Of a DNA stretch of 64,000 nucleotides, positions 1,510 to 62,200 are shown piece after piece. Position 1 is the first letter of the stretch, and each line of letters opens with the position of its first letter. The notes below the pieces were generated by a model that was not told the DNA's origin, did no database searches, and saw only the letters and a program-made list of their open reading frames with translations. Origin of the DNA: Membranipora membranacea (taxonomy: Eukaryota > Bryozoa > Gymnolaemata > Cheilostomatida > Membraniporidae); assembly GCA_914767715.1 (NCBI GenBank), contig OU612065.1, forward strand, positions 248,001 to 312,000, read 5' to 3'. The translations under genes were made by a program, and so were the position numbers.

Positions 1510-4500
1510 CTTTATTGAGATAAGTCATACGATCATCTTCTAGTTTGGCACCACATGAAGTCGCTGCTTCTAATTTCACTCTGTAACCCGCCATGTCATC
1601 AGCTCTGTAAAATAAAACCCCACACAGTTATACGTTAAGTATATGAGGAGGAGCTAGTGAGTATCTGTGTGTAAGGTGAGGAGAAGTACTTACAGGTTAA
1701 TCATAAACTCATTCTGAACACAGGCGAGAATAACTGCTCAACTTGTCAATATATAGTCCATGCCGCTGTCAGCGTAGTGCTCAAGGCTAAACTGAGATGG
1801 CACTAGATAAGGATGTACGTATGTACGTATGTGCGCATGTACGTATGTACGCACGTACGCACGTACGAACGAACGTACGCACGCACTTACGTACATACAT
1901 AGCGAGGGTAAGCGGAGAGAGGTTACTGGAGCTCTCATTGCTGCGCTACTGGTTTGTGGGTCAGGATCACAAAGCTCAATCATGTCAAGGTAAGTTTAAC
2001 TTTATATAATGTTTGAGAACAGAATAAATGTGCAGATAAAGCTGGAGATGATCAGTCAAGTAATGGGATTAATCACAGCTCTAATACATGGTGCAACTTA
2101 TAATTAATGGGAGGTTAGAGATTGAGCAATAAGGAGTTTGTATAGGGGGAAGGGCCGGAGCGAGACGGCAGCTATCATCATCAGTGATTCACTGAAGAGA
2201 CAGCAATCAGTGAGTGTAAACTAGTCACCACATGTCACACCCTAATAACCAATATAAAAACCTACTATGAATAAATATACAATATAAACCAGTAACAAGT
2301 AACAGGTTACTCCTTGTATAAAAAAAAAAAATAATTATAGAAGCAAATAAATAAACGATAAATGAGCAAATAAATGAGCAATTAAACGATGATATTAATA
2401 AGCAAATAAATAAATGATAATATAAGCAAATGTAAAAATAGTGTAAGCAAATAAATAAAAAACAATAAAAGCAAGTAAATAAATGATAATACAAGCAAAT
2501 GTAAAAATAGTGATATCAGCAAATAAATAAATCACTAAATATAACATACCGTTTTGCGTAAGCCATGTGGTTGATTGCAGAGTTTGAGTTATTACTCGCT
2601 GCTTTAGATGTACACTGGCGGGCGAATGTACACATTGAGGCTCTTCTCCTTTTAACACCAGTACTAAGGGTGGATACAGCTGTCTCACTGGAGGGGGAGC
2701 AGGGATTACTTATACACACCTGTCATATAGAACCTTACGATTATTATAACAGCAACATCAAGTCAAGTGGATCAGAAATAACACAGAAATAAACACCATG
2801 TTATAACAATTATAACGAACATTGAGTACTTTGAAGATTGAGAGAAATGACTGTAATTAGGAGAAATGGTATTCAGATTATAGCTGTACTATAATTACAA
2901 GCCACCTGATCAACTTCCATCACTCTCAGTCTGATAACGGCGGCAGTATTACCAGTTATATAATATAACCTAGATTCAACGGTACTCTAGAGAGGCCTCA
3001 CTCTATAAGACCATAAGAAGCAGCACATGGTGACACACTCATACACCCACTCACACACACAGACGAGTACTCGGCGAGTGACACACGCCAGTACTCAGCA
3101 AGTGTCACATACTAATTCTATGCAAATGTCACGCATCTCATGAAATGTTTAAAATACGGTAAAGATCTCCGCTTACTTTTAAATGTGGCAAGGCAGAAAA
3201 ATTAATGTCACATATCAAATTGAGACAATATCGAGCAGAATGATAAGTAATGGTTGGGGCTCAAAGAATAGAGACATAATAACAGTATGATTATAAGATG
3301 ATATGTATTGTCTCTCCTCTTATGGTCCCATTAACTGTGCATCACAAGCCTCTCATATCAGAGTCAGGTAATTAATACAGTAGAGATATACCTACATACA
3401 CACTTACCTCACTCTCAGAGCTACATGGGGTAATCTCTGTCTGATTCTCATCAAACCCGCTGTCTGGTGACTTTAGATGAGCTGCTGCTGTTGTCATGGC
3501 TGTCGCTGCCGATGAGGGCTGTGCCTTGGTCGGCAGCGCCGGTACTGTAGTAGCTATATTATGTTTGATGTTAGATAGATTACAGGCCTGCTGCAGAGTA
3601 TCTACAGTATGTTTAACTTCTAATGCTGAAGAAGGTCTCACAGATGAGCCTTTAGAAGTGAGCACCGAAGCAGGAGTGTATTTAAGCTCATCACTAGGGG
3701 TAGATACTGCTGCTGTTTGGTGCTGAAGCTGATGTTGCATTCTCAGCTGTTGACAGACAGGCATGCTGCCACTGAACCTCATGGGTGGAGCGATCTGAAG
3801 GGGTGGGACAGGCAGCACTGCTGCTGAACAAGTAGAATTAGAATTAGTCTCTCCTGCTGACACGACAGCGGGGGTGGTGCTGCTTGCTAAAGGTAAAGCT
3901 GCAGGTGTGGTGTTCAGCGCACCAGGCTGAACTATACCAGGCTGAATAGTACCAGGCTGGAAATTACCAGGCATGGCAAACGCCGGTCTCATCATATAAA
4001 AGTCAGTTGGGGCACAATACATGGCAGGTGCTGGTAGACGCATAGATTCAGTACCCATCATTCTACACCCGATGTTATAAGGGTAGAACTGAGGACCCCA
4101 GGCCATACCGATAGGGGGACGCTGCTGCTGCTGTATAACAGCTTGAGGACGACACGGTGTAACTTGAGTTATACCGAACTGTCCGTTGTGTATAAATGGT
4201 TGGACCTGCATTGGCCCAGAACTTGTTTGTACTATCTGTAGAGGCATGAGTTGAGGCAACATGGGATATGTTAGAGGCGTACCTGCACCAGGTGGTGGTA
4301 GTGGAGTGTTTGGTATTGAGGCTGCAACAGGGATAGGAGTTGAGGGGAGAGCGGTCGGTGTGTGAGAGGTTGTCGTAGTTGTTGTCGGACACTGTAATGT
4401 ATGATTAGGTTGCTGTTGTTGTTGCTGTTGTTGTTGCTGTTGTTGTTGCTGTTGTTGTTGCTGTTGTTGTTGCTGTTGTTGTTGCTGTGATAGTTTATTT

Positions 4501-9618: not shown

Positions 9619-9734
9619 GTCTGAGCCGAGGTCTGAGCCGAGGTCTGAGCCGAAGTCTGAGCCGAAGTCTGAGCCGAAGTCTGAGGCGCTGTCTGCGCCG
9701 TGGTTTGAGCCGATGTCCGAGCCGACAGCCGATC
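9618..9734 (-). repeat. 12-bp repeat, possibly coding (FGSD/LGSD)
   Basis: On the minus strand this reads in frame into the Grainyhead ATG at 9618 as repeats of Phe/Leu-Gly-Ser-Asp. It follows an acceptor-like TTGATTGTAG near 9735. Either an extension of the first identified exon or 5' UTR. Confidence 0.5.
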
Positions 9735-10137
9735 TACAATCAACAATTTATATATATTATATTTTAATAAAACATCTATATATCTATAGTCTGAGCCCCC
9801 CCAGACTTTTGCCCCCCACCCGACCGCCCCCGGGCGAGGGAAATATATCTAGAGAATATATCACTTTTTACTATTTTTCTGTTCAACAATATAAACTGAC
9901 TTATCATAAAGAAAATCATCAGGGAGAATAACTAACAATATATCAAATATGTCAAAATGGTGATGATCATTGTCATGATATTTCGATGTACCATTGCAAA
10001 CTGGCTGCTAAATTAGATTTTATTTATTTCTATGGTATGTTATAATTCAGTGGTAATTAGCAGATGGGACAATATGTAATGTATATTTACAGATCGGCAA
10101 AATGTACACCGTAGATACAGATGATAAGATCACAGAA

Positions 10138-10621
10138 GTAGGGATTTGTAGGGATTTGTAGGGTTTGTTGGGATTTGTAGGGATTGTAGGGATTGTAGGG
10201 ATTTGTAGGGATTGTAGGGATTGTAGGGATTGCAGGGATTGCAGGGATTGCAGGGATTTGTAGGGATTGTAGGGATTGCAGGGATTGCAGGGATTTGTAG
10301 GGATTGTAGGGATTTGTGGGGATTTGTGGGGATTGTGGGGATTGTGGGGATTGTGGGGATTGTGGGGATTTGTAGGGATTTGTAGGGATTGTAGGGATTT
10401 GTGGGGATTTGTAGGGATTGTAGGGATTGTAGGGATTTGTAGGGATTGTGGGGATTGTGGGGATTGTGGGGATTGTGGGGATTGTGGGGATTTGTAGGGA
10501 TTTGTAGGGATTGTAGGGATTTGTAGGGATTTGTAGAGATTGTAGGGATTGTAGGGATTTGTAGGGATTGTAGGGATTGTAGGATTTGTAGGGATTGTAG
10601 GGATTGTAGGGATTGTAGGGT
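10138..10621. repeat. G-rich array of GGGATTGTAG / GGGATTTGTAG units
   Basis: About 50 units of 9-11 bp (GGGATT followed by GTA or TGTA), with blocks of a GGGGATTGT variant. Strong G/C strand asymmetry. Confidence 0.9.
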
Positions 10622-11720: not shown

Positions 11721-11766
11721 CTACAAGCAATGAACTCCCTCTTCAGAGGGAGTTCATTGCTACAAG
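11721..11766. mobile_element. 32-bp perfect palindromic insertion with CTACAAG direct repeats
   Basis: Insert 11728-11759: arms CAATGAACTCCCTC and GAGGGAGTTCATTG around TTCA. Flanked by identical 7-mers CTACAAG at 11721-11727 and 11760-11766, as expected of a target-site duplication. Confidence 0.75.
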
Positions 11767-13178: not shown

Positions 13179-13223
13179 GGTAAACCAAGGAGTTAGTCCT
13201 TGCAATGAACTCCTTGGGTAAAC
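13179..13223. mobile_element. 31-bp palindromic insertion with GGTAAAC direct repeats
   Basis: Insert 13186-13216 starts CAAGGAGTTAG and ends AACTCCTTG. Flanked on both sides by GGTAAAC. Confidence 0.75.
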
Positions 13224-13752
13224 TAAGGAGTCAGCTCATCAAAACAGTAAAGTAAGTAATGCATTCCTTTCAAGTAGAACTGAATCACTTTTGCTCTGAA
13301 GTGGTTAATATTAACTGGACCATATGCAATGAGTGCATGACTTGGTTGATCAAAACTAGCACCTACCTTGAAGCATTGATCCTGGAAATAGAACTGTTCA
13401 GTCATTTACTTTCTCATTTTCCTTTTTTCATGCCTTTGACCAACGCCCAAATTACGACATAATATACCTAGTGTGGGCATAGATACCAGTAATCAACCTT
13501 TGATAGCTTCATTTGCTTTCCCATAAGACTTTGGAGATTGATGTTGACAGCTCAATGCACCGAAAACCCTCAGGAAAACTTGATAGTTAGAAACCTATCC
13601 ATTAAATAGTTTTTGGTAGGGTTTTCGTCTTATCATTAAAAGGCATCTCACAAAACTCATGTGGTTCTTTCTGTTACCTAGACTTGTAGTTCTTGTTTGT
13701 GTAGTTCACATTTTTTACTTTCCTTGAATAATTTTTCAATTGAAGGCTCAAG

Positions 13753-13787
13753 GTTACAGCAATGAACTCCCTCTTCATTGGTTACAG
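13753..13787. mobile_element. 21-bp palindromic insertion with GTTACAG direct repeats
   Basis: Insert 13760-13780 starts CAATGAACTCCC and ends TTCATTG. Flanked on both sides by GTTACAG. Confidence 0.75.
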
Positions 13788-13853: not shown

Positions 13854-13883
13854 CTTCAATCAAGGAGTACTCCTTGCTTCAAT
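13854..13883. mobile_element. 16-bp perfect palindrome with CTTCAAT direct repeats
   Basis: Insert 13861-13876 is CAAGGAGTACTCCTTG. It sits between two identical copies of CTTCAAT. Confidence 0.8.
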
Positions 13884-17400: not shown

Positions 17401-20400
17401 GATAGATGTATCAGATAGATGTATCAGATGGATGTATCAGATAGATGTATCAGATAGATGTATCAGATGGATGTATCAGATGGATGTATGAGATGGATGT
17501 ATCAGATGGATGTATCAGATGGATGTATCAGATGGATGTATCAGATGGATGTATCAGATGGATGTATCAGATGGATGTATCAGATGGATGTATCAGATGG
17601 ATGTATCAGATGGATGTATGAGATGGATGTATCAGATAGATGTATGAGATGGATGTATCAGATAGATGTATCAGATAGATGTATGAGATGGATGTATCAG
17701 ATGGATGTATCAGATAGATGTATCAGATAGATGTATCAGATGGATGTATCAGATAGATGTATCAGATAGATGTATCAGATGGATGTATCAGATGGATGTA
17801 TGAGATGGATGTATCAGATGGATGTATCAGATGGATGTATCAGATGGATGTATCAGATGGATGTATCAGATGGATGTATCAGATGGATGTATCAGATAGA
17901 TGTATCAGATAGATGTATGAGATGGATGTATGAGATAGATGTATGAGATGGATCAATGAACTCCCTCCCTGAGAGGAAGTTCATTGGATGGATTTATCAG
18001 ATGGATGTATCAGATGGATGTATCAGATAGATGTATCAGATAGATGTATCAGATAGATGTATCAGATAGATGTATCAGATGGATCAATGAACTCCCTCCC
18101 TGAGAGGAAGTTCATTGGATGGATTTATCAGATGGATGTATCAGATAGATGGACGAGAGTAAAAGTAAGAATAAGCCTGACATCATCAGGAGCTGAGATT
18201 AAATCATTAGCTGGTACTGCTGTAACTGTCCCATAACAATGTCTTAGTGCATTGTCAATTATTTATAAATCATTAATACATGTATTCGGTTATCTGTATT
18301 CTATTTGAGAATATAAAGGGAATACCCGCTAGGCAGGCAAAATTTTTGTTGAAAATTTTGTTTAATTCAAACCCAGTCAACTCATAGATTTTAGTATTCA
18401 GTTTGAACATCAATTAGGATTTTTCGTTAACCCAAACTCAATAAACTGTAATTTCATTCATTGGCCAATTTTTAGTAAGGTCATTATATTTCATGATTAT
18501 TCTATGAGGGTGCCTCTTAGTTATGGAGGCTAGTTTCACTAGTTTGGCCAGACTAGTCCCTTTAGTAATCTCATAATTATGTCTATTCTCTAGATATGAG
18601 TGTGAACGGACGGGCAGCAATGATTTATAGACCTACCTCCATCCACACTTTCCACATAGTTAGAGGGGAGGAAACCCTGAGCCCCCGTAGATTTGAGCAT
18701 GCCCATCCACCACTGTTCTGTGTCTTTATAAAGTATGGATATTATGTTGTTTTTCCTGAATGTTAACTCATCTGACCTCTGAGCCATATAATCATACAGA
18801 GCAACAACCTAAAATATAACATAGTTAAATAGAGCATTGTGTCATCATCAGATGTGTATACTACAGTCTACTACTGACCAAAAATAAAATGCAAATAAAT
18901 GGTAAAAGAGCAGTTCTGTCAGTGATTATTATATGAGATCAGCGATCAGAGTTGAATTTTCTATCATGTTATGAGGTGATTTTTACCTCGCCGATCGGCT
19001 TCATGTCATCAGCTCCCTGAAGAGTGAAACTGCTGACAGGGTTCTCCTCAGACGGCTAAAGAAGAAAACAGAAATATGATATATGATATAAGAACTCCCT
19101 CTCTCTCATTCATTGATTAGAGTGAGCAATATGAATAGTATTCATTAGAGAGAAGATAAATCCACAATTGAAACAAAAACCTAAAAGAAAGAAATGAGTA
19201 TAGTAGGAGTAAGCATAACTATCCTCCGAAGACTGCGAATCAGTTATGCCTTTAAGTTGAGGTCGACACAAAGACTCAATAATATCGAGTCTATGAGTCG
19301 ACATGCTCGGTGTAACCTGCTCTTAGTTTGCAGAAGTGTTCGTTAATCAGTGTACTACACTGGGATCTGTATTAAATCAGTGTACTACACTGGGATCTGT
19401 ATTAAATCAGTGTACTACACTGAGATCTGTATTAAATCAGTGTACTACACTGGGATCTGTATTAAATCAGTGTACTACACTGGGATCTGTATTAAATCAG
19501 TGTACTACACTGGGATCTGTATTAAATCAGTGTACTACACTGGGATCTGTATTAAATCAGTGTACTACACTGGGATCTGTATTAAATCAGTGTACTACAC
19601 TGGGATCTGTATTAAATCAGTGTACTACACTGGGATCTGTATTAAATCAGTGTACTACACTGGGATCTGTATTAAATCAGTGTACTACACTGGGATCTGT
19701 ATTAAATCAGTGTACTACACTGGGTGGGATCTGTATTAAATCAGTGTACTACACTGGGTGGGATCTGTATTAAAAACCTACAACAGTCCGTTACTCTAAC
19801 TAACTGCACTTGTGTCTATTTCCTAACTCCTATTACATGGGACTATTATCGCTTTTATAAATATATTGGTTGTTTTATCGTAGCACTTGAGAGAGTTTAC
19901 TCACCGCTGACAATGACATAATGGGTGCTCTATCAGTCCTGCTGCCCACTACAACAAAGTGAACAAATATATTCATCATTCCGAATTCCAAACAACCTTA
20001 TTCGAGCAAACAGTATATCCATATTGATAATATCATATGCTCATATAGATATGTAGGCGTAAAAGTAGGCATCAGAGTAGGCATCACAGTTGCTGACACT
20101 CAGTGTAAGAGACAGTGACACAGTAACTGTTGTTGTCTCGGTGTCCCAGTTAGTGTCCCAGTTAGTGTCAGTGATAGCGTCTCTATACCTGGTGTGAATC
20201 CTGGCCTCCATGTTCCACCACTAGCATTTTTCCTCATATATTCCATTTGAGAGGTGAGATGACTCCTCATAGCCTCTGTGTCTCCATTTTGTCGAGCGTG
20301 GGGCGACATGATTGTTGGCCCAAGTGTCTGGAAAGATATGGCTACAGTTGTCAATATTATAAACTAAAATTAATATCTCTTTAAGACTATTCACAGCAAT

Positions 20401-23400
20401 GAGAGGAAGTTCATTGCCAACATTTTAACGACCTTCATATTCAGGCAGCTTTTATACCGCAGCTGTAAATATTAAAAATGAAGGTGACAAAAATAACTAA
20501 CCGGAGCGATGTTAGACTGAGAGTAATTCGTGTCGAATGTTGATCCCCAGCCTCCAGTAGAATTCCATGTGCCAGTAGCTAATCCAGACATGGTACCTGT
20601 CACCACACCAGGGGGCGCTGTGGTCGATGACATCATAGCACTCGGGTCAGGATGTCTCTCAGTCTGTCTGCTAGCAGCTCTGTTAAACTCCTGTTGTTAC
20701 AACAAAACAAAAAAACTTAATTACATATATTAGATTATAGGTAATAGTACACTAATGTATATACATAAGAACTGTATGTCAACCATTATTAAGCAACACA
20801 CATTAATGTGTATATACTCATATTCACATTAATGTGTAAATACTCATATTCACATTAATGTGTATATACTCATATTCACATTAATGTGTATATACTCATA
20901 TTCACATTAATGTGTATATACTCATATTCACATTAATGTGTATATACTCATATTCACATTAATGTGTATATACTCATATTCACATTAATGTGTAAATACT
21001 CATATTCACATTAATGTGTATATACTCATATTCACATTAATGTGTAAATACTCATATTCACATTAATGCGTATATACTCATATTCACAAACCAGCTTACA
21101 TAGATGAGTATATCAGGCTCACAATCCACACTCAAGCAATGCATTACAAGAAGGCAGCTACACTTAGTACTTGGGACCAGTAAGACGTAACATCACACCC
21201 AGGACCTGTAAGGTGTAACATCACACACAAAACTAGATCGGGTAAAACATCTATCTGGAACAGGGAGACGTGATGTCACAAACTGGATCACTGATACGTA
21301 ACGCCACACACAGGACCAGTACAGTAGTGGTAAGGCCACACAAGTGACGAGAAGGGAGACACCACCACAAAAATTTCCCTAATCATGGGCAATGTTAGCC
21401 AGGGTTCCCAGGTGGTTGTGTTTGCTTATATATCTGAAGGATAATGCACTTGCACCCAATGGAATTACAAGTGCTGTCGTTTGTGATCTGAGCTGACAAG
21501 GATTTATTATATAATGGAGGTAGCATCTACTTAATATGTGTATAAACCCCATAGACTCAATAATAAGTATATGGTATACCCATATAAACAGAATACTTGG
21601 ACACTTATGTTTAACATGCAGTGATTTTAAGTCTAGCACAACTCAAGCCTCACCTTTGCTGTCTCTCCCTGTCAGTAAGAACAAACAAAAAATAAACAAA
21701 ATAAAATTTTTTATCACTTGCTATAATGATTGACCCTAAATGATCACCCACACCTACCACCTACTCTGACAGACCATTCACTTTTAGTGATCACAGCCAG
21801 CCTGGCTTATTAACAGAGGGCGTGTCTATGTGGTCCCTTACTGTTGTCTATGGGAATTCTTACTGTTGTCTATGGGATCTCTTACTGTTGTCTATGGGAT
21901 CTGTTCCTGTTGTCTATGTTACTGGGCTCATATATGGTTATGTAGTTATATTTACCATGACAGATTCTAGTTTTCTCATAGCTCTTTGTTTCTTAGTCTC
22001 TATGAGTAGAGATATATCTTCTCTGCCTCCTCTTCTTTGGGTCGCTGATACTTCATCATCAGACGGTAAACTGTGCAGATTACAAAAAAAACACATCAAT
22101 ATATCACATAAATACAATATAATCTATATATATATATATATCGTGATTAAATAGTACCTGGGATATAAGGAAGTATTCAAATGTAAACCAGAAAAGAACC
22201 TTGTTATGAACAGAACAAGAGAAACAGAAGCTGGAAAGATTAAAGCTTGAGCAATGAGCTGTATGAAGCTGAGTCAGAGCTGAGTTAGAGCTGAGTCAGA
22301 GCTGAGACAGAGCTGAGGGTTTAGTTGCCTGTGATGATATTTAGTTAGTAGAGTAGATAGATGTACTTTATCCTGTACTGTACATGGTACAGATCCAGGC
22401 TGTGATGTCATCAGGTACTTCATCAGCTCTCTATCTAGTTTATCTATAATTCTCTTCTCTAAAGGCTGACGATTTGTGAGCAGCTCCTTGTGACGGCTGA
22501 TAGAACAATCAATACATTTAATAGTGAGATCAGCGGAGATAGAGAGATGCTGCGCTAAGAACCCCCCTGGATGCCTATTTGGCAACCGCCGGATGTCCGC
22601 ATGGCATTCGGTGGTTGCCAAGCCTTATGCCTATTTAGCAACTGCCGAATGTCCACCGATGTTGATAACCATCGGATGCCATGCGGACATCCGGTGGTTG
22701 CTAAATAGGCATCAAGATTGGTTCGTGACAGTCACACTTTGAGACTGATACAATACAAAGTGAAAGTGATGGCCGGTTAGCAGATGGGTATTTGTCATAT
22801 TCGGATGGCCCTTTTACAGAGATGTGCGGAGAGCAGCCATTTACCGGACATGTTTTTAGCACAACAAGAGCGACGCTTATCCTATATTATATTTGCTGGT
22901 CACATGACACATACACAGGCTGACACAAGGGTTATGTGTAGTGTATATAACGTTGCTATAATGACTACATGAGATTCTTTGATGACGTGACACAGAGAAC
23001 AGGATGGAAAATGACTGAAGAGCACACCATATTATATACATACTTATCGTTAGCAGTGGCAGCTCCCCCAGATCTCGGTACTAATGTAAAGTAATTCTTA
23101 GCTTCTCTCTCTGCAAGGTTATACTCATACTTAAATATAAGCACCTTGTGATTATCTCCTCTTGAGCTGAACGCTACTATGTGATCAAGAGGATGGAACT
23201 TTACATCATTAACTGCTTGAGTGTAATTCAGCTCTGAGTATACAGCCACCTATATAATCATATCATCATATCATATCATACTATGTTATATCATACCATA
23301 TCATATCATTCTATATTACATCATATCATACTATATTATATCATTTCATATCATATCATAATAATATATGTCATCTAATACCCTATCATATGATACAATA

Positions 23401-32400: not shown

Positions 32401-34127
32401 AAAATTGTATGTTAATATTGAAAAGTGACCATGGACATAAAAACTCTACAACATGTGAGAGCCTGTATGACCTACAGATGACCTACAGATAATGTTATCC
32501 TGTGGATCTGCAGCCTCTGCTGCTTTTGAAGTTGACTTCTTTTTCCTTGTCTTCTTTTTTATATCTGCAATAATGAGAATACATAAATGTAAAACCTACA
32601 TATATGTAATACCCCTACATGTTTGTGATACCCAAATAAATGTGATACCCATATATAAAACAGCTAGTAATGTGATTGTAATATCCTTTGGCGTTCTACC
32701 AACATACTGATCGAGCAGCAATTCTGATTCCATAACACATCCAACAGAGTACTTGACTGTGCAATATATGGTGTCAAGAAAATCCATGCTGCTGAAAACC
32801 CCTGCTATCTGCTAGCGGCCCTCGAAAATACCTGCCTGGAAGATGATTTCTGCAGAATTTTGTTTGTTTCTATCTTATTGTAGGTTATTATTTTGAATGA
32901 GTCATTCTTTTGCAGTTTGATTACTTCGGTCCGTGTTGGTGTTTGATAATGAATCACCTCTAATAGCGTCCTAGACATAAATTCAAGTATCAACTATGTC
33001 GTATACAGAAATGTACATAATTTGGTAGTCTGAAGCAGACACAATCAACAAAACTTGAAACTGAGAACGCTGAGAACTGAGAGCGCTGCCATCCTTGCCA
33101 CCCACACATAGCCCAAAGAAAGGAAATGTGGTAGTTAGTATTTAGAGAACACTATGAGTATCTGAGTTTGTCACTTGCAACCCAACACAATATGTACCAA
33201 AGATTATCATGTTTATTTTCTGCATGCCAAAGGACTGAGTAGGCGATGTGATCTCTCTGCTTACCATGTCAGAGTGAGATTTGCCTTATTGATTGCAGTA
33301 AGAAGTTTGTTCCATGGGCCCCCGGGACTTACATGTCCTTAATTTGCCAATGTCCAGTATCAACCACCCAAAAACACCAAACAGGGTAACACACACAAAA
33401 ATATTTTTGTGTGTGTTACCCTGTTTGGTGTTTTTTGGGTGGTTGATGCTGGACATTGGCAAATTAAAGACATGTAAGTCCCAGGGGCCTATGGTTTGTT
33501 CAACTAAAAATTTAAGTTTGAGACGATGGCTGATGATGGAAAGTTCAACTGGGTCGAGATCAACGAAGTATTGAAGGCAAGACCAACATCGCATGAGTAT
33601 TTGGATTCCTTAATCAGATCATAACCGACCTATGCGCTGTCAGAGAGAGTGAACAGCCTTGAGAGTGGAACGCTTTACGCACTCTTGTCAACTTTTTGCA
33701 ATGGTGAGTGGACTGCCTGCCTTGTCACTAGCCACCCTGTCAGAACCCAGTTTCACACACATATAATCCTGCATCATCTTCTGCTTAGAACTGATGCAAA
33801 AGAACCCATTGACTTGCAAGTCTGAAACCGGTGTAAAGTATCTTTCTTCACTGCTCGTTATTTTGTAATGTAGAATCAATCATAACAGCTTGGTTAGTGA
33901 GTGCAAGGAGGAACTCCTTGGACTTGGTTGGTTAGTTGCACAAAATAATACAAATATCCTTGATTGACCACAAAATAAAAAGTTTATTGCATAAATGATC
34001 ATTGTGCAGTCTTCCCCTTTGCCCTGGGGTATTGTGAGGCCATATGGTCAGCTCCATGTCTCATTGCATTATCAGGGCTAGCATAATTTCTGTCAAAATA
34101 AAGTTACAACCAACCTGTGTCCGCCAT
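14466..34127 (-). CDS. AHI1: Jouberin (AHI1): WD40 and SH3 ciliary protein
   Basis: Adaptor of the ciliary transition zone and basal body (Joubert syndrome family). Coding exons, 5' to 3': 34115-34127, 32487-32564, 32077-32152, 31683-31740 (donor may be 6 nt further), 31149-31275, 30668-30864, 30488-30572, 29350-29557, 28896-29091, 27921-28312, 27102-27236, 25696-25866, 24675-24832, 24291-24490, 23839-24075, 23044-23249, 21956-22070, 21654-21668 (15-nt microexon), 20502-20690, 20189-20327, 19905-19948, 18987-19055, 18637-18808, 15812-15867, 15004-15113, 14466-14589. Every phase matches, giving about 1189 residues, close to human AHI1. Domains: Lys-rich N-terminus 1-211; conserved pre-WD region about 212-476 (TGQYL, FNENF, AWGFLKL-GANG); WD40 repeats about 480-845 (SRLPGQ, ASSDGTARVWD, CGTFVFSGSEDG); helical linker; SH3 about 1037-1093 (ALYDY, WWMG, GFLPSNYV); basic Arg-rich C-terminus. 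The introns carry many minisatellites and transposon remains. Confidence 0.95.
15668..15795. repeat. Tandem repeat GGGAGGAGTTTGTGGGCTGAGTC
   Basis: About five imperfect units of GAGGAGTTTGTGGG with or without GCTGAGTCTGAG. It begins within about 20 nt of the donor of AHI1 exon 15812-15867. Confidence 0.8.
17947..17993. mobile_element. 33-bp palindromic insertion in the 13-bp array, GATGGAT direct repeats
   Basis: Insert 17954-17986 starts CAATGAACTCCCTC and ends GAGAGGAAGTTCATTG. It is flanked by GATGGAT on both sides. Since GATGGAT is part of the 13-bp unit, the duplication is visible because it breaks the array register. Confidence 0.7.
18078..18124. mobile_element. Second copy of the 33-bp palindromic insertion
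   Basis: Insert 18085-18117 is identical to the one at 17954, with identical flanks and the same following GATGGATTTATC. It was most likely copied with the surrounding array rather than inserted independently. Confidence 0.7.
19347..19771. repeat. 30-bp minisatellite, about 14 copies
   Basis: Unit contains GTGTACTACACTGGGATCTG and is almost perfectly homogeneous. The last two copies carry a GGGT insertion. AHI1 intron. Long plus-strand frames here are by-products. Confidence 0.95.
20397..20416. mobile_element. 20-bp relic of the short palindrome family
   Basis: CAATGAGAGGAAGTTCATTG retains the ends of the 33-bp insertions but lacks one arm. No 7-bp flanking repeat is visible (TTCACAG on the left, CCAACAT on the right). 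Confidence 0.4.
20796..21088. repeat. 26-bp minisatellite, about 11 copies
   Basis: Unit contains ACATTAATGTGTATATACTC, including the palindrome ACATTAATGT. AHI1 intron. Confidence 0.9.
22329..22496 (-). other. Candidate AHI1 cassette exon (168 nt) with GC donor
   Basis: Between AHI1 exons 23044-23249 and 21956-22070, which splice together in frame without it, a minus-strand stretch reads RHKELLTNRQPLEKR and DKLDRELMKYL. It has an acceptor TTCTATCAG, phase 2 on both sides, 56 codons without a stop, and a possible GC donor (CACAG then GCAACT). It would add a helical segment between the WD40 and SH3 domains. The weak GC donor is the main doubt. Confidence 0.35.
22570..22713. mobile_element. 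144-bp foldback MITE
   Basis: Termini are inverted repeats of about 44 bp starting GATGCCTATTT(A/G)GCAACC. The interior is a diverged partial copy of the arm sequence. AHI1 intron. Confidence 0.75.
23240..23475. repeat. Degenerate ATCATATCATACTAT repeat
   Basis: AT-rich run of ATCAT words, immediately upstream (minus strand) of the AHI1 exon 23044-23249 acceptor. Confidence 0.7.
23640..23822. repeat. C-tract and about 35-bp imperfect tandem repeat
   Basis: A run of about 15 C is followed by four diverged copies of a unit containing GATGTGACTGGACCACCCACC, ending next to the donor of AHI1 exon 23839-24075. Confidence 0.75.
24834..25614 (-). repeat. 36-bp minisatellite that copies the AHI1 exon 13 acceptor
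   Basis: About 21 copies. On the coding strand every unit reads TATTATTACAGGGTATGAG, nearly identical to the true acceptor and start of exon 24675-24832 (TATTATTACAG then GGTATGGGATGC). The exon-intron junction itself was amplified. The unit is divisible by three, and its exon-like frame runs open through the array. Confidence 0.9.
26330..27110 (-). repeat. 48-bp minisatellite that copies the AHI1 exon 11 donor
   Basis: About 16 copies. On the coding strand each unit carries the last bases of exon 27102-27236 and its donor (CCACAATGGCAG then GTAAGATT). Only the exon-proximal donor is productive, because reading on meets the in-frame TAA contained in every donor copy (AGG TAA). Confidence 0.9.
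27460..27730 (-). other. Arg/Ser-rich open frame inside an AHI1 intron
   Basis: A minus-strand open frame runs through an internal near-duplication (SAAKRRQ and SAVKRRQ), then through SHRSVSRAARSHSSVSG to a stop at 27464. The flanking AHI1 exons join in frame without it. Alternative exon, retained-intron reading or chance; I cannot choose. Confidence 0.25.
28566..28861. mobile_element. 296-bp TIR element carrying a tRNA-like sequence
   Basis: The ends are inverted: TTACCCTATAGGAGTTTA on the left, TAAACTCCTATAGGGTAA on the right. A TA target duplication is possible but not provable here. It lies in the AHI1 intron between exons 28896-29091 and 27921-28312 and contains the tRNA-like region 28627-28704. 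Confidence 0.65.
28627..28704 (-). pseudogene. tRNA-like sequence (degenerate, Ala-TGC-like)
   Basis: On the minus strand it has an A-box-like TGGTGTAGTGG and a perfect B box GGTTCGAATCC at tRNA spacing. The loop CTTGCAA would give anticodon TGC. Acceptor and T stems do not pair well, so this is a tRNA-derived relic or SINE head rather than a working tRNA. Confidence 0.6.
29218..29336. repeat. 15-bp tandem repeat (GTTGTCATGTTATGA type)
   Basis: About eight imperfect copies in the AHI1 intron, beginning some 15 nt from the donor of exon 29350-29557. Confidence 0.8.
29562..30312 (+). mobile_element. CR1/L2-type LINE 3' fragment, antisense in an AHI1 intron
   Basis: The plus strand encodes the C-terminal end of a reverse transcriptase: LHWLPIRSLSKFKL, then after a stop near 29846 STLPAVWNSLPS and SSFKSQLKTYL. 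These are hallmarks of L2/CR1-clade elements. The copy ends in a TTA microsatellite (30288-30310), usual for such tails. It is 5'-truncated, broken by a stop, and abuts the acceptor of AHI1 exon 29350-29557. Confidence 0.8.
33313..33494. mobile_element. 182-bp foldback element (near-perfect hairpin)
   Basis: Two arms of about 91 bp meet at 33404 with virtually no loop (AAAATATTTTTG centre). Left arm starts CATGGGCCCC; right arm ends GGGGCCTATGG. Only a few mismatches separate the arms. First AHI1 intron. Confidence 0.85.
33904..33920. mobile_element. 17-bp member of the short palindrome family
   Basis: CAAGGAGGAACTCCTTG has the family ends, but no 7-bp direct repeat flanks it. Confidence 0.4.
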
Positions 34128-48634: not shown

Positions 48635-50087
<1,453 letters not shown>

Positions 50088-50812: not shown

Positions 50813-50837
50813 ATTTCACCAAGGAGTTAGATTTCAC
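50813..50837. mobile_element. 11-bp half-footprint with ATTTCAC direct repeats
   Basis: CAAGGAGTTAG lies between two ATTTCAC copies (or 8-mers GATTTCAC with a 10-bp insert). It equals one end of the short palindrome family without its partner. Confidence 0.6.
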
Positions 50838-51339: not shown

Positions 51340-51439
51340 CTATGCATGAATACAACAAAACAGGAAAAAATATGTCATTTTTTTACAGTCATCAAAAAGA
51401 CCTGCATCATCACCTACATAAGAACAAACGTTTCAGTAG

Positions 51440-51470
51440 CTGTGAGCAAGGAGTAACTCCCTGCTGTGAG
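51440..51470. mobile_element. 17-bp palindromic insertion with CTGTGAG direct repeats
   Basis: CAAGGAGTAACTCCCTG (51447-51463) between two perfect copies of CTGTGAG. Confidence 0.75.
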
Positions 51471-52797: not shown

Positions 52798-53206
52798 AGA
52801 AAACATAACTTCAGTCCACACTGATAAAAAATTCCCCTTATAATATTCCATATATTATATCATGTATGACTCATGTTGGGATTCTCTTCCAACTCTCCCA
52901 ATGAACAAGCTGTCAGTATGATTGGTAGAGCAAATATCAAAACTATAATTTTCCCATTCAGTACATTTTTGAGCAATTCTAGCTGTAATTTCAAGCAGAT
53001 ATTTTAGGAACAAGAATCTTTGTGCATTATATTATATAATCTCTCTCTCCCTATATATATATATATATAAATTTGTTCTAAACATATATTATATAAATAT
53101 AAAATATATTAGAACAAATTAGTTCATCATAGCAACAAGGAGACAAGTTCAAAATTATGTTTTGCACGGAATGATGAATAAACATTGTTGTTGTTGTGGC
53201 TTGCAG

Positions 53207-56200
53207 GGCTTGTCACATTTTGGAGTCAAAAAAGAGGAAGGATAGTCGAATAAGTCAACCTAAAATCTCTTCATACACAAGTGTAAGTTCGTTACTTTAG
53301 TTGTGGAGTGACTTGTGCTGGTGATTGCATGATGTCATTGATCTGCTGGTATACTGGATTTCTCACCAGTTCTAACATTGTTTATATGTTATGGTGGTGA
53401 ACCCTCTCCCCATCCCTCCCCTTTTTTTCAATTATCCCCCCCCCCTATTCCTCCCCTCGGTCCCTCCCGTTCATACCACCACAGTGATTGCGCGCCCCTC
53501 AATCCCCATCCATAGGAGTAATTCCTTTTGTCACATGGCACGACTCACTACTTTAGAGAAGCTGCTGCTAGCTTCACATTCAGTTGGGTCTCACTCACTT
53601 TTTTTCTAGGATTATGGTCCCAAATATTCTCCTAGAAGAGTTCCTATTATACCAAAGAAACATTCTGTGGAATCTTCAACTGCAATGGAGAAAGCCACAG
53701 AATTCAACCAAAACTTCACTCCAAAACAGGTTTGCTGCTGTTTTATAATATCTTAAAGCATTCCTTCAACTAGCAGTAGGAACCTCAGAAAAAAATGTCT
53801 GTACACGGTACTTCGGAAAAATCACTAAACAATACTTGGCCATGTTTTACTGCGTTCAGGGTGCTCTATGATTAATGGTGCTAACTTTAGTTGACTAGAA
53901 CTATGAATTGTAAATTTGTTGTCAGTTTTTTTTCAGAATTGACAACAAAGGGTGGGGGGAGAGTGTACCTGTTGGCTGTAAAAGTCAAGCCAACTAGCTA
54001 ATCACACAATAACTCAACTTAGAATGATGTGATGTACAGTACAATAGTATATAGAGCAATAAATCACCAATGTAGTTCCCTCTCATTTTAGAGAAAACCC
54101 AAAAAAACACTTTGGACCATAATGCTAAGCATCATTATGGTGATCACCCAAAAGGCCACTGCCAAAAAGCCACTGGTCATATGGCCACTGGTTAAAAAGC
54201 CGCTGCCCAAAAAGCCACTCGTTACATAATAAAAGTCTGATATCAACTTTCCATTGACATGTTTTTTGGGGCCCGTAAATCAAAATTCTAGCTCTCGATA
54301 TGCCATTTATAAATGATTTTTTATTTCTATTCACTGATTCCCATTTTAGTAAAGTTAGAAACGATCCCACCCACCCTTTGCAAATTATTATTTTGAATGA
54401 CTCCACCTGGACCTCTTCTCACACATGTTTTATGTACCGTAACCCCCAATCGATACATTGAAATGTATCTTGATGGACAAATAAAAGTTATCACAAGCAA
54501 ACAGTCAGCACTTTTAGATCGAAGCAATGCAGCTCTGAGAAGAGACAGCGTTGTAGCTTTTTTGATTTTGACATGCCACATGCCAAGCACAAGTGAGTTG
54601 CATACCCTACCGGGAACAACAGAAAAAGTCAGTGATCAGGTTACAAAACATTAAGCAATAGCGATCAAGTTGAGTTGGTTGGGTTTTTTGGTCATCAATA
54701 ATAAAACATTCGATGGATGCACAGATAGATCTTGGTAGAGTTTTGTATTGTTCAAATCTGATATAACCATGTGATAATCAAAATCGATCACAGGGTGCAT
54801 TGGGTAAAAGTGATACTAAAAATCTTTCCATGTGAATATAAATTATTGTCACCTTACGATGTAAAAAATCAAAAAAACTGCACAGCTGTCTCTGCTCAGT
54901 GCGGCATTTCTTCGATCTAGATGTGCTTATTGTTTAATTGTGATGACTTTAATTTGTCCATCAAGATACATTTTAATGTATTGATCGGGGGTTACGGTAC
55001 GGAAAAAGTGTGTGAGAAGATGTCGGGGTTGGGTCATTTAAAATAATTATTTGCAAAGGGTGGGTGGGATCTTTTCTAAATTTACTAAAATCGGAATCAG
55101 TGAGTAGAAATAAAAAAATCATTGAAAAAGGTATATCAAGTGCTAGAATTTTGTTTCACAGGTCCGAAAAAAACATGTCAACGAAAGTTGATATCAGACC
55201 TATATGATGTAACCATTGAACCAGTGGCTTTTTGGGCAGTGGCTTTTTGACCAGTGGCCTTATGATCAGTGGCCTTTTGACCAGTGGCCTTATGACCAGT
55301 GGCCTTTTGTCCAGTGGCCTTATGACCAGTGGCTTTTTGGCCAGTGGCTTTTTGGCAAAAAAAAATATCTGAGAATGTGATCATAACCTCAGCTTGTTCA
55401 GATGCTGACAATGTTACCCTAATTTCAGCTTGGTCAGAGGTTTGTGTATAAATTCTTGTTGATGTAACACTGTTCATCTTGTTACCCTACATTGATAATG
55501 AAGTGCAGATCAAGTTTATGATCCTGGCTGAGAGTCATGACATTATCCCAATTAGACAAGTCAATTTGATCTCCGACTATAATATATTTTCAAAACATAA
55601 CAGCAATCTCATTTGTTCCCCAAGTAGAAATATTTTAATTGAATTGAAAATTTTGCCCACATGAATTGATCAATTTTGACGTCCTGCCTTTAGCCAAGTT
55701 TATACTTGCATATAACCAATGAGTAACTTCGCTATTACTCCTTGATATAACTTGGCAATGCAACTTTTTTGTAATATTTTTTTCTGTTATCAGCTTGATT
55801 GCATTGACAACTGTAGCAAAGACAGATAAATTTGCAGATGTGCGCATAGCTGTTTTATAATATGATACAGCATGAGTAAAAAAGTTTGCTTCACTGCTGA
55901 CCGAATCCTATTATAATGTGTGGTTGATTACCAAATATGAGAGAGAGAGAGAGAGAAAGTCTCATGCTGACATATTATTCTGAGACTGAGTAACAATATG
56001 TTTTATACTAAGCCTCTTACAATGTCTGATATTTTGCAGCTGGTTTAAGATAATAATATAAAGGCGCTTTTCAATTTATTTACATGAGAGGTTTTTCAAT
56101 TAAACTCCTTAGTTACTTGTATTCATGCCTTTATTATATCATGCTGAGTTTTTGTCCTCAGTCAATATTGTAATATGTGGATAAGCTGACCTTAGTAACA

Positions 56201-59200
56201 GTGTGTGCTGCCTCTATGCTGCCTGCTGCCTGCCTTCAGTATATGAGATTAAATATAAAGTGACCTGCACTGGGATATTAAGTAGCTCATAACTAAAGCT
56301 GTGGATAATAAGTGAGAATTCATCAGGTAGGTAGTAAAGATGTGTTCTTACTATTTGTGTACTTACCCTGTGTGAACTTACCCTGTGTGTACTTACTTTA
56401 CTTGTAGGCTGATGTACCGGAGTCTTATGCACCGCTCTACAGATACACCACTCCACAACAATCCATGTTACGATCCTCTGTCTATAGAGATACATTTGAT
56501 GTAAAACCTGTAAGAAGAGATATTGATGATTTTTGTGTCATGTTTGATGATTAGGATTTATCTGTGGATGATAAAGGATTTATATCATTACGCGACATCA
56601 TAACACACTGTCCACTTCTCACTGCAGAGCATTGCTGTTGCTATGTTTATAATGATTGTAGCTAACTAAGACGATAAATTTGAGATATTTTGTATCTGTA
56701 TGTATCTCGCTGATATAACAGTAGAAGTATTATTATTATATAGCTGCCAGAGGTAGAGCGTTGGCCCGTCAGATCATACATAGTTTGTACAGGTGACCCC
56801 GAGTCAAGAGGAAGAGGAGCTGATACTGAATATACATCTTCTTATGATAAATATCTAACAGAAGACGAGATGTTGGCTGTAAGACTCGCTCCTATCAGAC
56901 AGAAGGATAATCTGCTACCCGAGCAGGGAAGTAAGATGGAGACAACTACTACTAACAAAGTGAGTAATAGCTGATTACATGTGCAAATTACAGTCGTCAC
57001 AGGATCACTCTTACAGACCAGACCAGACCAGTTATCTATCGCAGTCATAGACCTACTGATAATAGGTCTATGATCACAGTCATAGATCTACTAATAATAG
57101 GTCTATGATCACAGTACATTTTCTCCACTGAAGTAAAAATGCTCCCAGATATGGCTGTATATATGATTGGCTGTATATATTGGCTGTATATATTGGCTGT
57201 ATATATTGGCTGTATATATGGCTGTATATATTGGCTGTATATATGGCTGTATATATGGCTGTATATATTGGCTGTATATATTGGCTGTATATATGGCTGT
57301 ATATATTGGCTGTATATATGGCTGTATATATGGGCTGTATATATTGGCTGTATATATGGCTTTATATATTGGCTGTGTATATTGGCTGTGTATATGGCTG
57401 TGTATATGGCTGTGTATATGGCTGTATATATGTCTGTATATATTGGCTGTATATATGGCTGTATATATGCTGTATATATGGCTGTATATATTGGCTGTAT
57501 ATATGGCTGTATATATTGGCTGTATATATGGCTGTATATATGGCTGTATATATGGCTGTATATATGGCTGTATATATGGCTGTATATATTGGCTGTATAT
57601 ATGCTGTATATATGCTGTATATATGGCTGTATATATTGGCTGTATATATGCTGTATATATGGCTGTATATATGGCTGTATATATGCTGATTGTTTAGCGT
57701 AGCTACGTTTAACTGTAGATTATAGGGTGATAGTGCTCCAGTTTGGAACTACCGCTGCTTGCCTCTGCTTGAGTCTTACTTAAACTGAAACTAAATGTTC
57801 TTTTATAAATGCGCTTTATAATGAGTGATACAGTATGAAAGGAGGGATATAAGATATTCTTCAGCATCGTAAGGCAATATCAATGTCAGACAAATTAGAC
57901 TAGATGATAGGGAGATTGAGCCGTAACGCTACCAACTCATGCATGTGGTGACTGGTTGATGTAGGCCAGGGGGGGGGGGCTTAATACGATAAATCCTGTG
58001 TAACCTTGCCCCTCCTCAATCATCCTGAGCCAGCATGATCTTAGAGCTGCCTTCTTTTCTGTTTATGTCATTTTGTGAACATCAGTTTGCTGAAGACCAT
58101 CAAATTGGCAAGATAGTTGATTAAATGTTCAAATCAGCGAGATAAAATTGGACACACATGTAATGAAACACCCATGGGGTTTGAGCTTTATATTTATATT
58201 TTGTATACAGGGGAAATTTTGGTTAAATTGAACAAATATTAAGAACCAAGTAATGGATGTTCAGAATGTAATGTTGATAAGACCGCTGCTGCTATTCTTG
58301 ACACGAATCCCGGTTATTGATTTTGGTTCCTTTCCCAGCTTGATATATGGTCAGCTATATAAACCTTGATATTTGCTGCCTTCTTTAAACACTAGCACAG
58401 GTATGCAGTGCTTATTTCCCTTCCACCTGTACCTGTAGCTGATGGGCCGGCGGCGTGTCTATGACCTACTGGCCTGTTTACGATTGACTGCTCTGTTTAA
58501 TATCTGTTTATTATCTGTTTATTATTTTGTTTGTTTGTGAATGGTAGGAAGCTTACAAGGGGGTGAGACAAACTCCAGCTCATCTTATCAGACCAAAACA
58601 CAAACCTATAAGTGAAATGGAACCATTCCAAACAAGTACAGAAAACAGAGACTCATTCACAGCTAAAGCTATACAGCCTGTTAAAGGTATCTCATAATCA
58701 ACGGTCTCTATACACTACTATCTATACAATTATGTCATACACTAGGGTATCTCAACTTCAAAAAACAGCCAAAATGTATCAGAAAACACATAGTGCAATT
58801 TGAAGGGATCGTAGATCTAGAAGTTAGAGGATTATGAGTCACTTGGCAGATCAGACCAGGAAACCAACCATTAAGTGAAGCAGTGTGTATCCGTGTCTGT
58901 GAGTAATGATTGCTGGTATTATGAGTTGCTCCCCCTCGACCCACAAGGTTGCCCACTGTAGAATCTGAGTGACTGACCCGTAATGCAGGCCAATCGGATC
59001 AAGCTTTGCAATAAAATATGTATTAAATTAGGAATAGTTATATTAACTCACCTCATTGTAACAGCTAAAGTCACCAGCGGGAAGCTCTCGGTGTCAGCAT
59101 CTCGGGAAAGTAATTTTTAGTGGTGTCACATGATGCTATGTTATCTGTCTATGTATAACTTGGCTGTTTACGAATAACCTGCAAACAAATAATGCTAGAA

Positions 59201-62200
59201 TAAAAATTCTTATATTATCTTGGAAATAATTAAGCTTTGAATATTTATACAAAGGAGAGGAGAGGAACATTTTCTAAACATCAAACTAAAATTGCAAGCT
59301 TTTTCAAAGAGAGAAAAATTTTGGTCCATAAATTTGCTTGCAGAACAACATTGGAATCGCAGCAACCTCAACATTTTATTGATTGAGTATATGTATTAGA
59401 ATAACTTCTATGGCTGTATTTTTTGAAGGAAAGAACAATGAAGACCGTCATATTTTCTCTGCCATAACAACCTGATGGTATATCAATACATACTCGTTTC
59501 CAGTTTCATATTTTCATGAGGGGGGGTAAAATTTTTAATCTTCATCAGATTCAGTTTACATACAAATATTACATGTAAATTTTTACAGAATACATACTTA
59601 TTGTGTCCCAAATATGTCAGAAGATCAATAAGACCTATAACCTATAACCTATACCAAATAAAACAAGGTCACTAGTGAAGTCGTCAATTGTGATTATGAT
59701 TTTATCATTAACAGATCAAGGAGTTAACTCCTTGAGCAGATCAAGAGTAATTAAGTTTTCCAATCGTATACAGATGATTTTCCATGGCCGTCTCTATTAC
59801 AGCTTACAAACTAAAAGACAACGAAATAATGAGCGGTTCATTTGAGGGCAACAGTGGCTACAAAGACGACTTCAAACCAAGAGCTGCACAAAAGACACAG
59901 AGGTTTGTAAACGAAGTCATTTGTAGGTACAATAACTGAATTTATTTCTTATTCGCTTGTCATGCAGATTTTATACACTTCACATGTTTGGAATCAGCTC
60001 CCAGTTTATTCTTTCTCCGTAAAACTGCACTCCAAAGTAATGTTCATATGCTGCTTAATCAACTGGTGAAATTAAAAACTAGCGGGATTAATCGTTAAAC
60101 TAATAGATTTAGTGTCTGATTTCAAAGTGTGCTTCTTGGGAGTTTTGAAAGACTCAAATATTATCGTAAATTTTTTCATATAATTTTAAACTGAAATTTG
60201 TTTTCAAATACTAAACAATTCATGTGCAATGATACAATAGATTGAGATAATTTATTTAACTAATTTATCTGGACAGTCATTATTGGACAGGTATCTTACC
60301 GTAGGGTGATAATAGCTGTATAGAAGGAGTTTAATGTTTTATTGTATTTGAACAGTTTTGCTCCAGCTTACGAGTACAGAAGGCCTTCTGCTAAGTTTGC
60401 CAGCGAGACGACAAATCAGAGTGACTTTGTAACATATAAGGATGTGAAAAAACAGCCTAAATCAGTGATGAGCTCACACGATCACTGGAAGGAGATACAG
60501 AGAATGGGAGGTGATAATAATGTGGAGAGTACTTATAAGGTAAGTTATACTTACTTAACTATGTGTAGGTTATATCTGACTGAGCTGGGGTGGTGAGCTA
60601 TAAATAACATCATAGTGCCCCAATGATCACCTGGTACAAAATGTGTCATCTACTCTGATATGCAATCTGTTATTGTGAGTGACATGTTCTCTTACAAGCA
60701 TAGCTGTGCTGTACTTATGTATTAGGTGTACTAGATGTATTGTTTATGTATAATACTGTGTATTGATGCTGTGATACTGTGTTACTTATAGTTTACTAGC
60801 TACCGACCCTCCGTACCACAGTGTGATTGTACCTTGTTTGATGAGAAGGAATGTGTTCATGATGTGAATAATAGATGCTGTCCCACTGTACCACATATCA
60901 GAGATGTCACAACACCAAACTCTCCCTCATTCTCATCATACAATTCTACTACCTCACCACACCATCAACATGAGAGGCAGGTCCCTCGCCGTATCTTATC
61001 TGATACGCTATATCTACAAGTGCCTACTCGACCTACCTCCACCCGACCTACGTATACACGACCTACCTCCACCCGACCTACGTATACACGACCTACCTCC
61101 ACCCGACCTACGTCTACACGACCTACCTCCACCAGACCTTCCTCAACAAGACCCTCATCTACACGACGTTCATCTACACGGCCTAGAACTACCAGTCCTA
61201 CAGACTCAATGCCTTGTCACGATAGAGTAGCGACTCCATTTAGGCCATTATCAGGTCGGCTCACTCCACTATCCAAACTGAACATGGAATGTGTCAAATA
61301 CCTCCAAGCCCAAACTGCTCACCATCCCCAGGCCTTGTTTGATCCTCATTCTAATATCGCTGATCCTCCTTCCTTAAACTTCTACCCACATCGTCAGCAT
61401 AAATAACATTAAACTATCCCATTACTCCAACCACCATCAATGTCTGGAGATATTTGTCAATATCTAATGAATGACACTATTGTTGAGCCAACATATATAG
61501 AAGTTATCTGCTACTTATTGAGTGACCGATAACTTCTTATATCAATGGCAAAATGAGAGAAATTCTCGAGATGTGAATCTGTCTTAGATACGCGAAATAA
61601 ACAGTAACTGGACAACTTACTTGCTAAATTATGATAAAAAAGTTTGTTTAAGCGAAATATGCATTATTATAAGACAGAATATATATTCATTAAAATAAGA
61701 CAGATACATACTCATAACTATAAGACATGATAAGCCTTTAGGTGTAATCATTGAATTCCATATCTGGAATAGCATCATTAGCTTTCTTTTGCCAAAAAAA
61801 TGGCTCGCAAAGAAAGCCAGTTCCTAGTAGCATTTTAGGAAAACCCAAATCATCCACATGGAAGGCATTTTACCACTGTTTGCAGTTTTTGAACACAAGA
61901 TAACTTCTCAGGCTATGTTATATGTGCTAGTAGGGACAGCCAATCAGATCAATGTCAGATAAGTCCTTGTGTTTAGTGTTCTAACTCTATAAGGCTATCC
62001 TGAGATTTCCGTTCCATGAGAAGAATTTAATTCAGTGGATGTAATATCTGCCTCTTGTACTCTTCTGTCTATGAATGATTCTGTATTCATGAATGTAGAG
62101 TTGATGCATATTGCAACAGCATCGTTAGCGTTAGTACATAAAGCTGACAGATCATGTAATTGAATTAATTCTGCTCTCATCGCATGAATGGAACAATTGG

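What the first reader, a model, noticed from the sequence alone, without database searches (positions are those of the whole stretch)
2283..59741. Dispersed ultra-short palindromic insertions flanked by 7-bp direct repeats
Seen directly: a family of 11-33-bp inserts with ends CAAGGAGT or CAATGA(AC/GT) and the reverse complement, each between two copies of a site-specific 7-mer: CTACAAG (11721), GGTAAAC (13179), GTTACAG (13753), CTTCAAT (13854), GATGGAT (17947 and 18078), ATTTCAC (50813), CTGTGAG (51440), ATATAAC (55710), plus one-mismatch cases at 2283 and 59710. Two further members (20397, 33904) lack repeats. Different 7-mers at every independent site are what a transposition target duplication looks like, yet the inserts are far too short to be normal transposons. 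Inference: either excision footprints of a DNA transposon that leaves both terminal segments plus the duplication behind, as P-superfamily cut geometry can do (P-type staggered cuts leave about 17 nt of each end), or the smallest MITEs known to me.
Basis: partly seen in the sequence, partly recalled or inferred. Interest (0 to 1): 0.92.

Follow-up and report, generated by a model that had tools for sequence, protein, structure and literature searches.

The report
Thousands of jumping-gene excision scars
The tiny palindromes in this animal genome are most likely scars left where P-element-like jumping genes cut themselves out, each scar keeping roughly 20 or fewer letters of each end of the lost element between two copies of the 7-letter target, which makes the genome a natural record of how such elements leave and how the break is mended.

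Summary
In the window's assembly (339 Mb, 18 contigs) CAAGGAGT-N0-30-ACTCCTTG occurs 3084 times against 4 for the reversed pattern. Of 44 sampled places 30 have exact 7-bp flanking repeats and 8 more one mismatch (shuffled pairs: 0.6 exact); 0 of 27 look-alikes in bacterial and viral contigs do. One insert sits in a 13-bp minisatellite whose register shifts by exactly insert plus 7 bp, an internal empty site. Elements (313-1590 bp) with the CAATGAAC end, 7-bp repeats and, in the 892-bp one, a perfect 33-nt inverted repeat exist. Sampled scars keep 17-20 nt of that end (one of 38 reaches 25, chosen for at least 17). The 17-mer end occurs 889 times, its 28-mer extension 68 times. So the inserts read as excision scars. 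The genome has 78 P-transposase matches and P elements with 8-bp duplications; a scar matching one of these families lies at 57046-57107. The transposase of the two 7-bp families was not found, so P-superfamily membership is inferred. The smallest-MITE reading is unlikely, not excluded.

The parts
2283..2323 (.). scar-like 27-nt insert CAGTAACAAGTAACAGGTTACTCCTTG between TATAAAC and TATAAAA (one mismatch); only the right end is of the family
11721..11766 (.). scar, 32 nt (17 nt of one end + 15 nt of the other end of the CAATGAAC element), repeats CTACAAG
13179..13223 (.). scar, 31 nt, repeats GGTAAAC; the right flank TAAGGAGTCAG resembles the element end
13753..13787 (.). scar, 21 nt CAATGAACTCCCTCTTCATTG (17 + 7 nt sharing 3 nt), repeats GTTACAG
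13854..13883 (.). scar, 16 nt CAAGGAGTACTCCTTG, repeats CTTCAAT
17947..17993 (.). scar, 33 nt, repeats GATGGAT, inside 13-bp minisatellite; shifts array register by 40 mod 13
18078..18124 (.). same scar duplicated with the array
19261..19303 (.). scar-like 27-nt insert CAAAGACTCAATAATATCGAGTCTATG, 8-bp flanks GGTCGACA/AGTCGACA (one mismatch)
20397..20416 (.). 20-nt remnant, no flanking repeat; on the minus strand it begins CAATGAACTTCCTCTCA, a variant end also seen at 17986
33904..33920 (.). 17-nt remnant CAAGGAGGAACTCCTTG, no flanking repeat
50813..50837 (.). one-ended scar, 11 nt CAAGGAGTTAG, repeats ATTTCAC
51440..51470 (.). scar, 17 nt CAAGGAGTAACTCCCTG, repeats CTGTGAG
55710..55751 (.). 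scar, 28 nt, repeats ATATAAC
57038..57115 (.). scar matching P family A (each copy equals 18 of the first 19 nt of its end), 27 nt twice between three copies of ATCRCAGT (8 bp)
59710..59741 (.). scar, 18 nt CAAGGAGTTAACTCCTTG, flanks AACAGAT/AGCAGAT

Best explanation
The inserts are excision scars of P-superfamily-like cut-and-paste transposons. An element inserted with a 7-bp target duplication at a palindromic site (about TTN[GC]TNNNA[GC]NAA). Transposase later cut the two strands unequally, leaving about 17-20 nt of each terminal repeat on the chromosome as 3' single strands. The host joined the two tails by short complementary stretches, fill-in and templated filler, so remnants of both ends stay between the two target copies. 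Shown: the inserts and 7-bp repeats; elements with the CAATGAAC end and a longer terminal repeat; the upper limit on retained length; the target preference; P-transposase genes, and a scar matching the ends of one P family. Inferred: the strand geometry, the repair route, that the CAAGGAGT scars have the same origin, and that the unfound transposase of the 7-bp families is of the P superfamily.
For: Genome-wide excess 3084 against 4; exact 7-bp repeats in 30 of 44 sampled places, at most one mismatch in 38 of 44; 0 of 27 look-alikes elsewhere. The minisatellite register shows insert + 7 bp added to a single-copy target. Elements of 892 and 1590 bp with exact and of 1210 and 313 bp with one-mismatch 7-bp duplications; 33-nt terminal repeat. 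17-mer end 889 copies, 28-mer end 68; the 16 convergent 28-mer pairs span 541-2163 bp. Retained length in 38 scar ends: 17 (22), 18 (7), 19 (6), 20 (2), 25 (1) (chosen for at least 17). Both end families share the target pattern. 78 PF12017 matches; P family A with THAP and P-transposase domains, 8-bp duplications and end CATAGACC, with a matching scar in the window. Literature: 17-nt 3' overhangs after P excision, polymerase theta in their joining (PMC2895639, passages); 7-bp GTANTAC duplications in Galileo of the P superfamily (PMC4168063, passages).
Against: No transposase was tied to the CAAGGAGT or CAATGAAC ends. Nine P-transposase loci were fetched; ends were defined in only four of them (families A and B) and are different; in the other five no element with these ends and repeated flanks was found within the stretch fetched. 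Four P-transposase frames had no tblastn match at E up to 1 in the fetched CAATGAAC element stretches. No full-length element with a CAAGGAGT end was established, although that is the commoner scar. 13 of 31 sampled CAATGAAC scars are the same 21-mer, which a mobile unit would also give. Retained lengths reach 19, 20 and once 25 nt, so the cut need not be at 17. The P elements defined here make 8-bp, not 7-bp, duplications. 6 of 44 sampled palindromes have more than one mismatch in the flanks, and 6 of 53 sampled 17-mer ends fit neither class.
Confidence: 0.86

Rival explanations
1. Micro-MITEs: the 16-33-nt palindromes are themselves moved in trans by a transposase that recognises about 8-17 nt and duplicates 7 bp.
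For: 13 of 31 sampled CAATGAAC inserts are the identical 21-mer at different 7-mers; the 16-mer CAAGGAGTACTCCTTG recurs at 5 of the 51 sites compared.
Against: The other sampled inserts vary in length and middle, and many read as two truncated ends of a longer element, with shared nucleotides or filler at the joint; the recurrent 21-mer has a 3-nt shared TTC at its joint. Drosophila P elements are said to need at least 138 bp of the 5' end and 216 bp of the 3' end; Anopheles P-MITEs keep under 100 bp per end (PMC1562414, passages).
Confidence: 0.05
2. Excision scars as above, but of another superfamily with 7-bp duplications (recalled candidates: a Dada-like or hAT-like element).
For: The cognate transposase of the 7-bp families was not found; P elements with identified ends here make 8-bp duplications.
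Against: As I recall, hAT scars lose rather than keep terminal nucleotides. CA..TG ends, a palindromic [GC]TNNNA[GC] target, 17-20 nt retained, and an alike scar matching a P family point to P.
Confidence: 0.08
3. Chance or replication-slippage palindromes (quasipalindromes) with fortuitous flanking repeats.
For: Tandem arrays in the window produce many trivial direct repeats.
Against: 3084 against 4 genome-wide; 30 of 44 exact 7-bp repeats against 0.6; 0 of 27 in control collections.
Confidence: 0.01

Closest known systems
Drosophila melanogaster P element excision footprints
   Same: 17-nt 3' overhangs after excision, end joining with microhomology in these tails or templated insertions (PMC2895639, passages); that the 8-bp duplication and parts of the terminal repeats remain is recalled.
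   Different: There known from excision assays and 8-bp duplications; here thousands of places in one genome, 7-bp duplications, retention up to about 20 nt.
Galileo (P superfamily, Drosophila)
   Same: Mostly 7-bp duplications with palindromic GTANTAC consensus inside a 15-bp palindromic motif (PMC4168063, passages).
   Different: Outer motif differs (here T-rich at -3/-2, there AA); the passages seen do not describe footprints.
P-MITEs of Anopheles gambiae
   Same: Short non-autonomous elements keeping P ends and duplications (PMC1562414, passages), comparable to the 892-1590-bp elements here.
   Different: 8-bp duplications, and whole elements rather than 11-46-nt scars.
Zebrafish Pdre2 / THAP9
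   Same: Vertebrate P-like element with terminal repeats CATACCTGTCAAC and THAP9 transposase (PMC10983969, passages).
   Different: 8-bp duplication, 13-bp terminal repeat; footprint families not described in the passages seen.

Membership tests
P superfamily (for the CAATGAAC and CAAGGAGT elements) | P-type transposase (THAP, PF12017, PF21787/PF21788) encoded by an element with these ends | tested here: inconclusive
   78 PF12017 matches in the genome; 9 loci fetched, ends defined in 4 and different, not defined in 5
P superfamily (for the CAATGAAC and CAAGGAGT elements) | 7- or 8-bp target duplication | tested here: met
   7 bp
P superfamily (for the CAATGAAC and CAAGGAGT elements) | terminal inverted repeats beginning CA, tens of bp | tested here: met
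   33-nt perfect repeat in the 892-bp element; for CAATGAAC only, no full CAAGGAGT element established
P superfamily (for the CAATGAAC and CAAGGAGT elements) | palindromic target motif extending beyond the duplication | tested here: met
P superfamily (for the CAATGAAC and CAAGGAGT elements) | excision leaves about 17 nt of each end | tested here: met
   17-20 nt in 37 of 38 scar ends, one 25 (sample chosen for at least 17, CAATGAAC family only); inferred from scars, not from cleavage
P superfamily, family A (scar at window 57046-57107) | transposase plus ends plus duplication on one element | tested here: met
   4933- and 4922-bp copies with 8-bp duplications; THAP and P domains read in the C2 copy; whether they are active was not tested
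MITE (mobile short unit) | homogeneous full-length copies each with its own duplication | tested here: not met
   lengths and middles vary, although 13 of 31 share one 21-mer

The most novel reading that the evidence does not exclude
The recurrent 21-mer and 16-mer are themselves mobile: a transposase that needs only 8-17 nt per end moves units of 16-21 nt, the shortest cut-and-paste elements known.
Probability: 0.05. Interest if true: 0.95.

Novelty: new variant of a known kind. Interest (0 to 1): 0.62.

Why it matters
As far as I recall, excision footprints are mostly studied one at a time in assays. Here one genome appears to hold thousands. For the CAATGAAC family scar ends outnumber ends of whole elements about four to one in 49 consecutive sampled places, and 17-mer ends outnumber 28-mer ends thirteen to one genome-wide. 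If right, the cut position, preferred end-joining products and target preference of a P-like transposase can be read from a genome alone, and repeat finders may miscall such scars as tiny repeats. It also makes testable how often germline excision is mended by end joining rather than from the sister chromatid.

Tried and rejected
Looked for a full-length element inside the window: no candidate with matching ends and repeats. Looked for CAAGGAGTTA-N0-12-TAACTCCTTG in viral and prokaryotic collections: 2 + 25 stretches, none with 7-bp repeats of at most one mismatch. Compared fetched P loci with the scar ends: no tie to the 7-bp families, but a tie to another window palindrome. The C11/C3 P-like locus (L116, L120) is 99.4% identical over 4.8 kb and 99.3% over 6.4 kb with flanks; its ends were not resolved. 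A protein search with a window frame gave 3 unnamed hits and no organism. Papers: a search for 'P elements', 'sponge', 'THAP', 'transposase' returned 0; others answered were. No title or abstract start listed there mentions genome-wide P footprints; four papers were seen as passages, none whole. Not answered, tool busy: counts of CATAGACCTACTAATAATAAACC, CATAGACCTN{0,20}AGGTCTATG and CAAGGAGTN{31,60}ACTCCTTG. The phylum of the animal was not established; my early guess of sponge rests on recall only.
Full report
What is there. Nine have exact 7-bp flanks, two have one mismatch, two have none; at 2283 only one end is of the family and at 50813 only one end is left. In scans the exact class is above Markov controls (7 against a mean of 0.25 in 20 runs; 8 against 0 in five runs). 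Tandem arrays give large trivial counts for six other 3-mers. A scan that did not ask for CAA ends (7-mer repeats, 5-nt terminal complementarity) gave 75 rows, 9 after filtering, and 6 of those 9 were this family.

An empty site inside the window. Copies at 17954 and 18085 lie in a minisatellite of 13-bp units (array 16183-18084; register followed from 17880 to about 18150). The register drops by one at each copy, which is 40 mod 13, that is 33 nt of insert plus 7 nt of duplication; neighbouring units carry one GATGGAT or a one-letter variant of it. The two inserts are identical and 131 bp apart, 40 + 7 units of 13, so the array was probably duplicated after one insertion.

Whole genome. The window is C1:248001-312000 of an assembly of 339,339,785 bases in 18 contigs. 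CAAGGAGT-N0-30-ACTCCTTG occurs at 3084 places against 4 for the reversed pattern. I took 44 of the 50 listed places (the listing is capped at the first places of C1; one window member and the last five left out; two of the 44 are in the window): 30 exact 7-bp repeats, 8 with one mismatch, 2 with two, 2 with three, 1 with four and 1 with seven; the one with four has an exact repeat 15 nt further on. Shuffled pairing gives 0.6 exact. The match is 0.89-0.93 at each of the seven positions and 0.23-0.61 in the positions beside them, the higher values fitting a shared target preference. The palindrome CAAGGAGTTA-N0-12-TAACTCCTTG in viral and prokaryotic contigs (2 + 25 stretches) has repeats in 0 of 27.

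Target preference. In 51 empty sites the pattern is about TTN-[GC]TNNNA[GC]-NAA, palindromic and centred on the 7-mer. The 31 CAATGAAC scars give the same pattern, so one kind of transposase probably served both.

Full elements. CAATGAACTCCCTCTTC occurs 441 + 448 times, 0 reversed. Fetched stretches hold an 892-bp element with ATTGGCT on both sides and a 33-nt perfect inverted repeat, a 1590-bp one (CAGTCGT on both sides), a 1210-bp one (CTTACAT/CTTGCAT; only its ends fetched, as for the 1590-bp one) and a 313-bp internally deleted one (GTCTGTG/GTCTGCG). The 28-mer end occurs 33 + 35 times; its 16 convergent pairs span 541-2163 bp. Thus 889 ends reach 17 nt and 68 reach 28 exactly; ends that differ in positions 18-28, by decay or subfamily, are counted among the shorter ones.

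Anatomy of the scars. I looked at 53 of the 889 17-mer ends: the first 49 listed and 4 of two later places. 38 are in scars, 9 in elements with at least 28 nt of the repeat, 6 in neither class; of the 49 consecutive ones, 35, 9 and 5. Among the six are the shortened end of the 313-bp element, the other end of a scar counted once, and scar-like inserts without a clear repeat. After removing double rows and limiting length to 47 nt there are 31 distinct scars, 26 with exact repeats, 30 different 7-mers; 13 share the 21-mer CAATGAACTCCCTCTTCATTG. Two rows with lengths 48 and 53 have doubtful ends. Retained lengths are 17 to 20, one 25; the sample was chosen for at least 17, so only the upper limit is informative. 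The one 25 lies where the repeat is nearly palindromic (TTCCTCAGGAA). Read against one reference end, joints show 0-3 shared nucleotides in some scars and 1-20 nt of filler in others; several large 'fillers' reflect variant ends.

P elements in the same genome. PF12017 matches at 78 places, in 0 of 14 control genomes. Two copies of family A (4933 bp on C2, 4922 bp on C1; 98.8% identical over 4666 aligned positions) have 8-bp duplications GTTAGATC and GAAATACC and ends CATAGACCTACTAATAATAAACC. The C2 copy has a frame with THAP, PF12017, PF21787 and PF21788 and a second frame with PF21789; whether the gene is whole or active was not tested. The window carries at 57046-57107 two 27-nt inserts, each equal to 18 of the first 19 nt of that end followed by the start of the other end, between three 8-bp ATCRCAGT copies: a scar of that family, duplicated in tandem. 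Family B has ends CATAGAGTTATCCCCC and 8-bp duplications GGCAAAGC and AGGAAAAC. So a P family leaves the same kind of scar; the 7-bp families are like it in what could be tested, but their transposase was not found.

Mechanism. After P excision each end carries a 17-nt 3' overhang, and polymerase theta takes part in joining them, with microhomologies in the tails and templated insertions (PMC2895639, passages). The scars here have the expected parts: target duplication, up to about 20 nt of each end, joints at short shared stretches. The geometry and repair route are inferred, not shown. Galileo shows that 7-bp duplications with GTANTAC occur in the P superfamily (PMC4168063, passages).

The statement on P loci was narrowed (ends defined in 4 of 9 loci), 'autonomous' was dropped where activity was not tested, and the ratio of scars to elements is given from both counts; confidence went from 0.87 to 0.86 and the other-superfamily rival from 0.07 to 0.08.

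Verdict. Scars of P-superfamily-like transposons, 0.86. Known mechanism, unusual scale: a new variant of a known kind.

Noticed in passing
57038-57115: Tandem duplication of an 8-bp-flanked scar matching P family A (ends CATAGACC); the first-stage list did not include it.
   Followed up: partly
13186-13240: The sequence right of the second GGTAAAC (TAAGGAGTCAG) equals the element end CAAGGAGTTAG at 9 of 11 positions; at 13861 the right flank CTTCAATGAACT also contains an end-like CAATGAACT. Perhaps repeated insertion near older scars.
   Followed up: no
L021 7248-8032 (C5:5067248-5068032): A 785-bp element with CAGGGAGAATGGAAGGGG ends and exact 7-bp repeats ATGTAAG; a 44-nt insert with CAGGGAGTT ends and repeats ATCATAC lies at C5:5047334. 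Perhaps a further related family.
   Followed up: partly
33312-33494: Inverted repeat of 63 nt whose arm has a 90% identical copy near C5:5085700 in L023: a dispersed hairpin repeat.
   Followed up: no
54262-55172: Inverted repeat with 308-nt arms, 84% complementary, 295 nt apart, edged by 15-bp tandem repeats.
   Followed up: no
window: Many minisatellites (77 tandem-repeat rows, overlapping rows included), some with 100% matching units.
   Followed up: no
L116, L120: P-like transposase frame of 754 aa in L116, in a locus that is 99% identical between C11 and C3, with CAAGGAGT-like motifs at L116 601 and 673; ends not resolved.
   Followed up: partly
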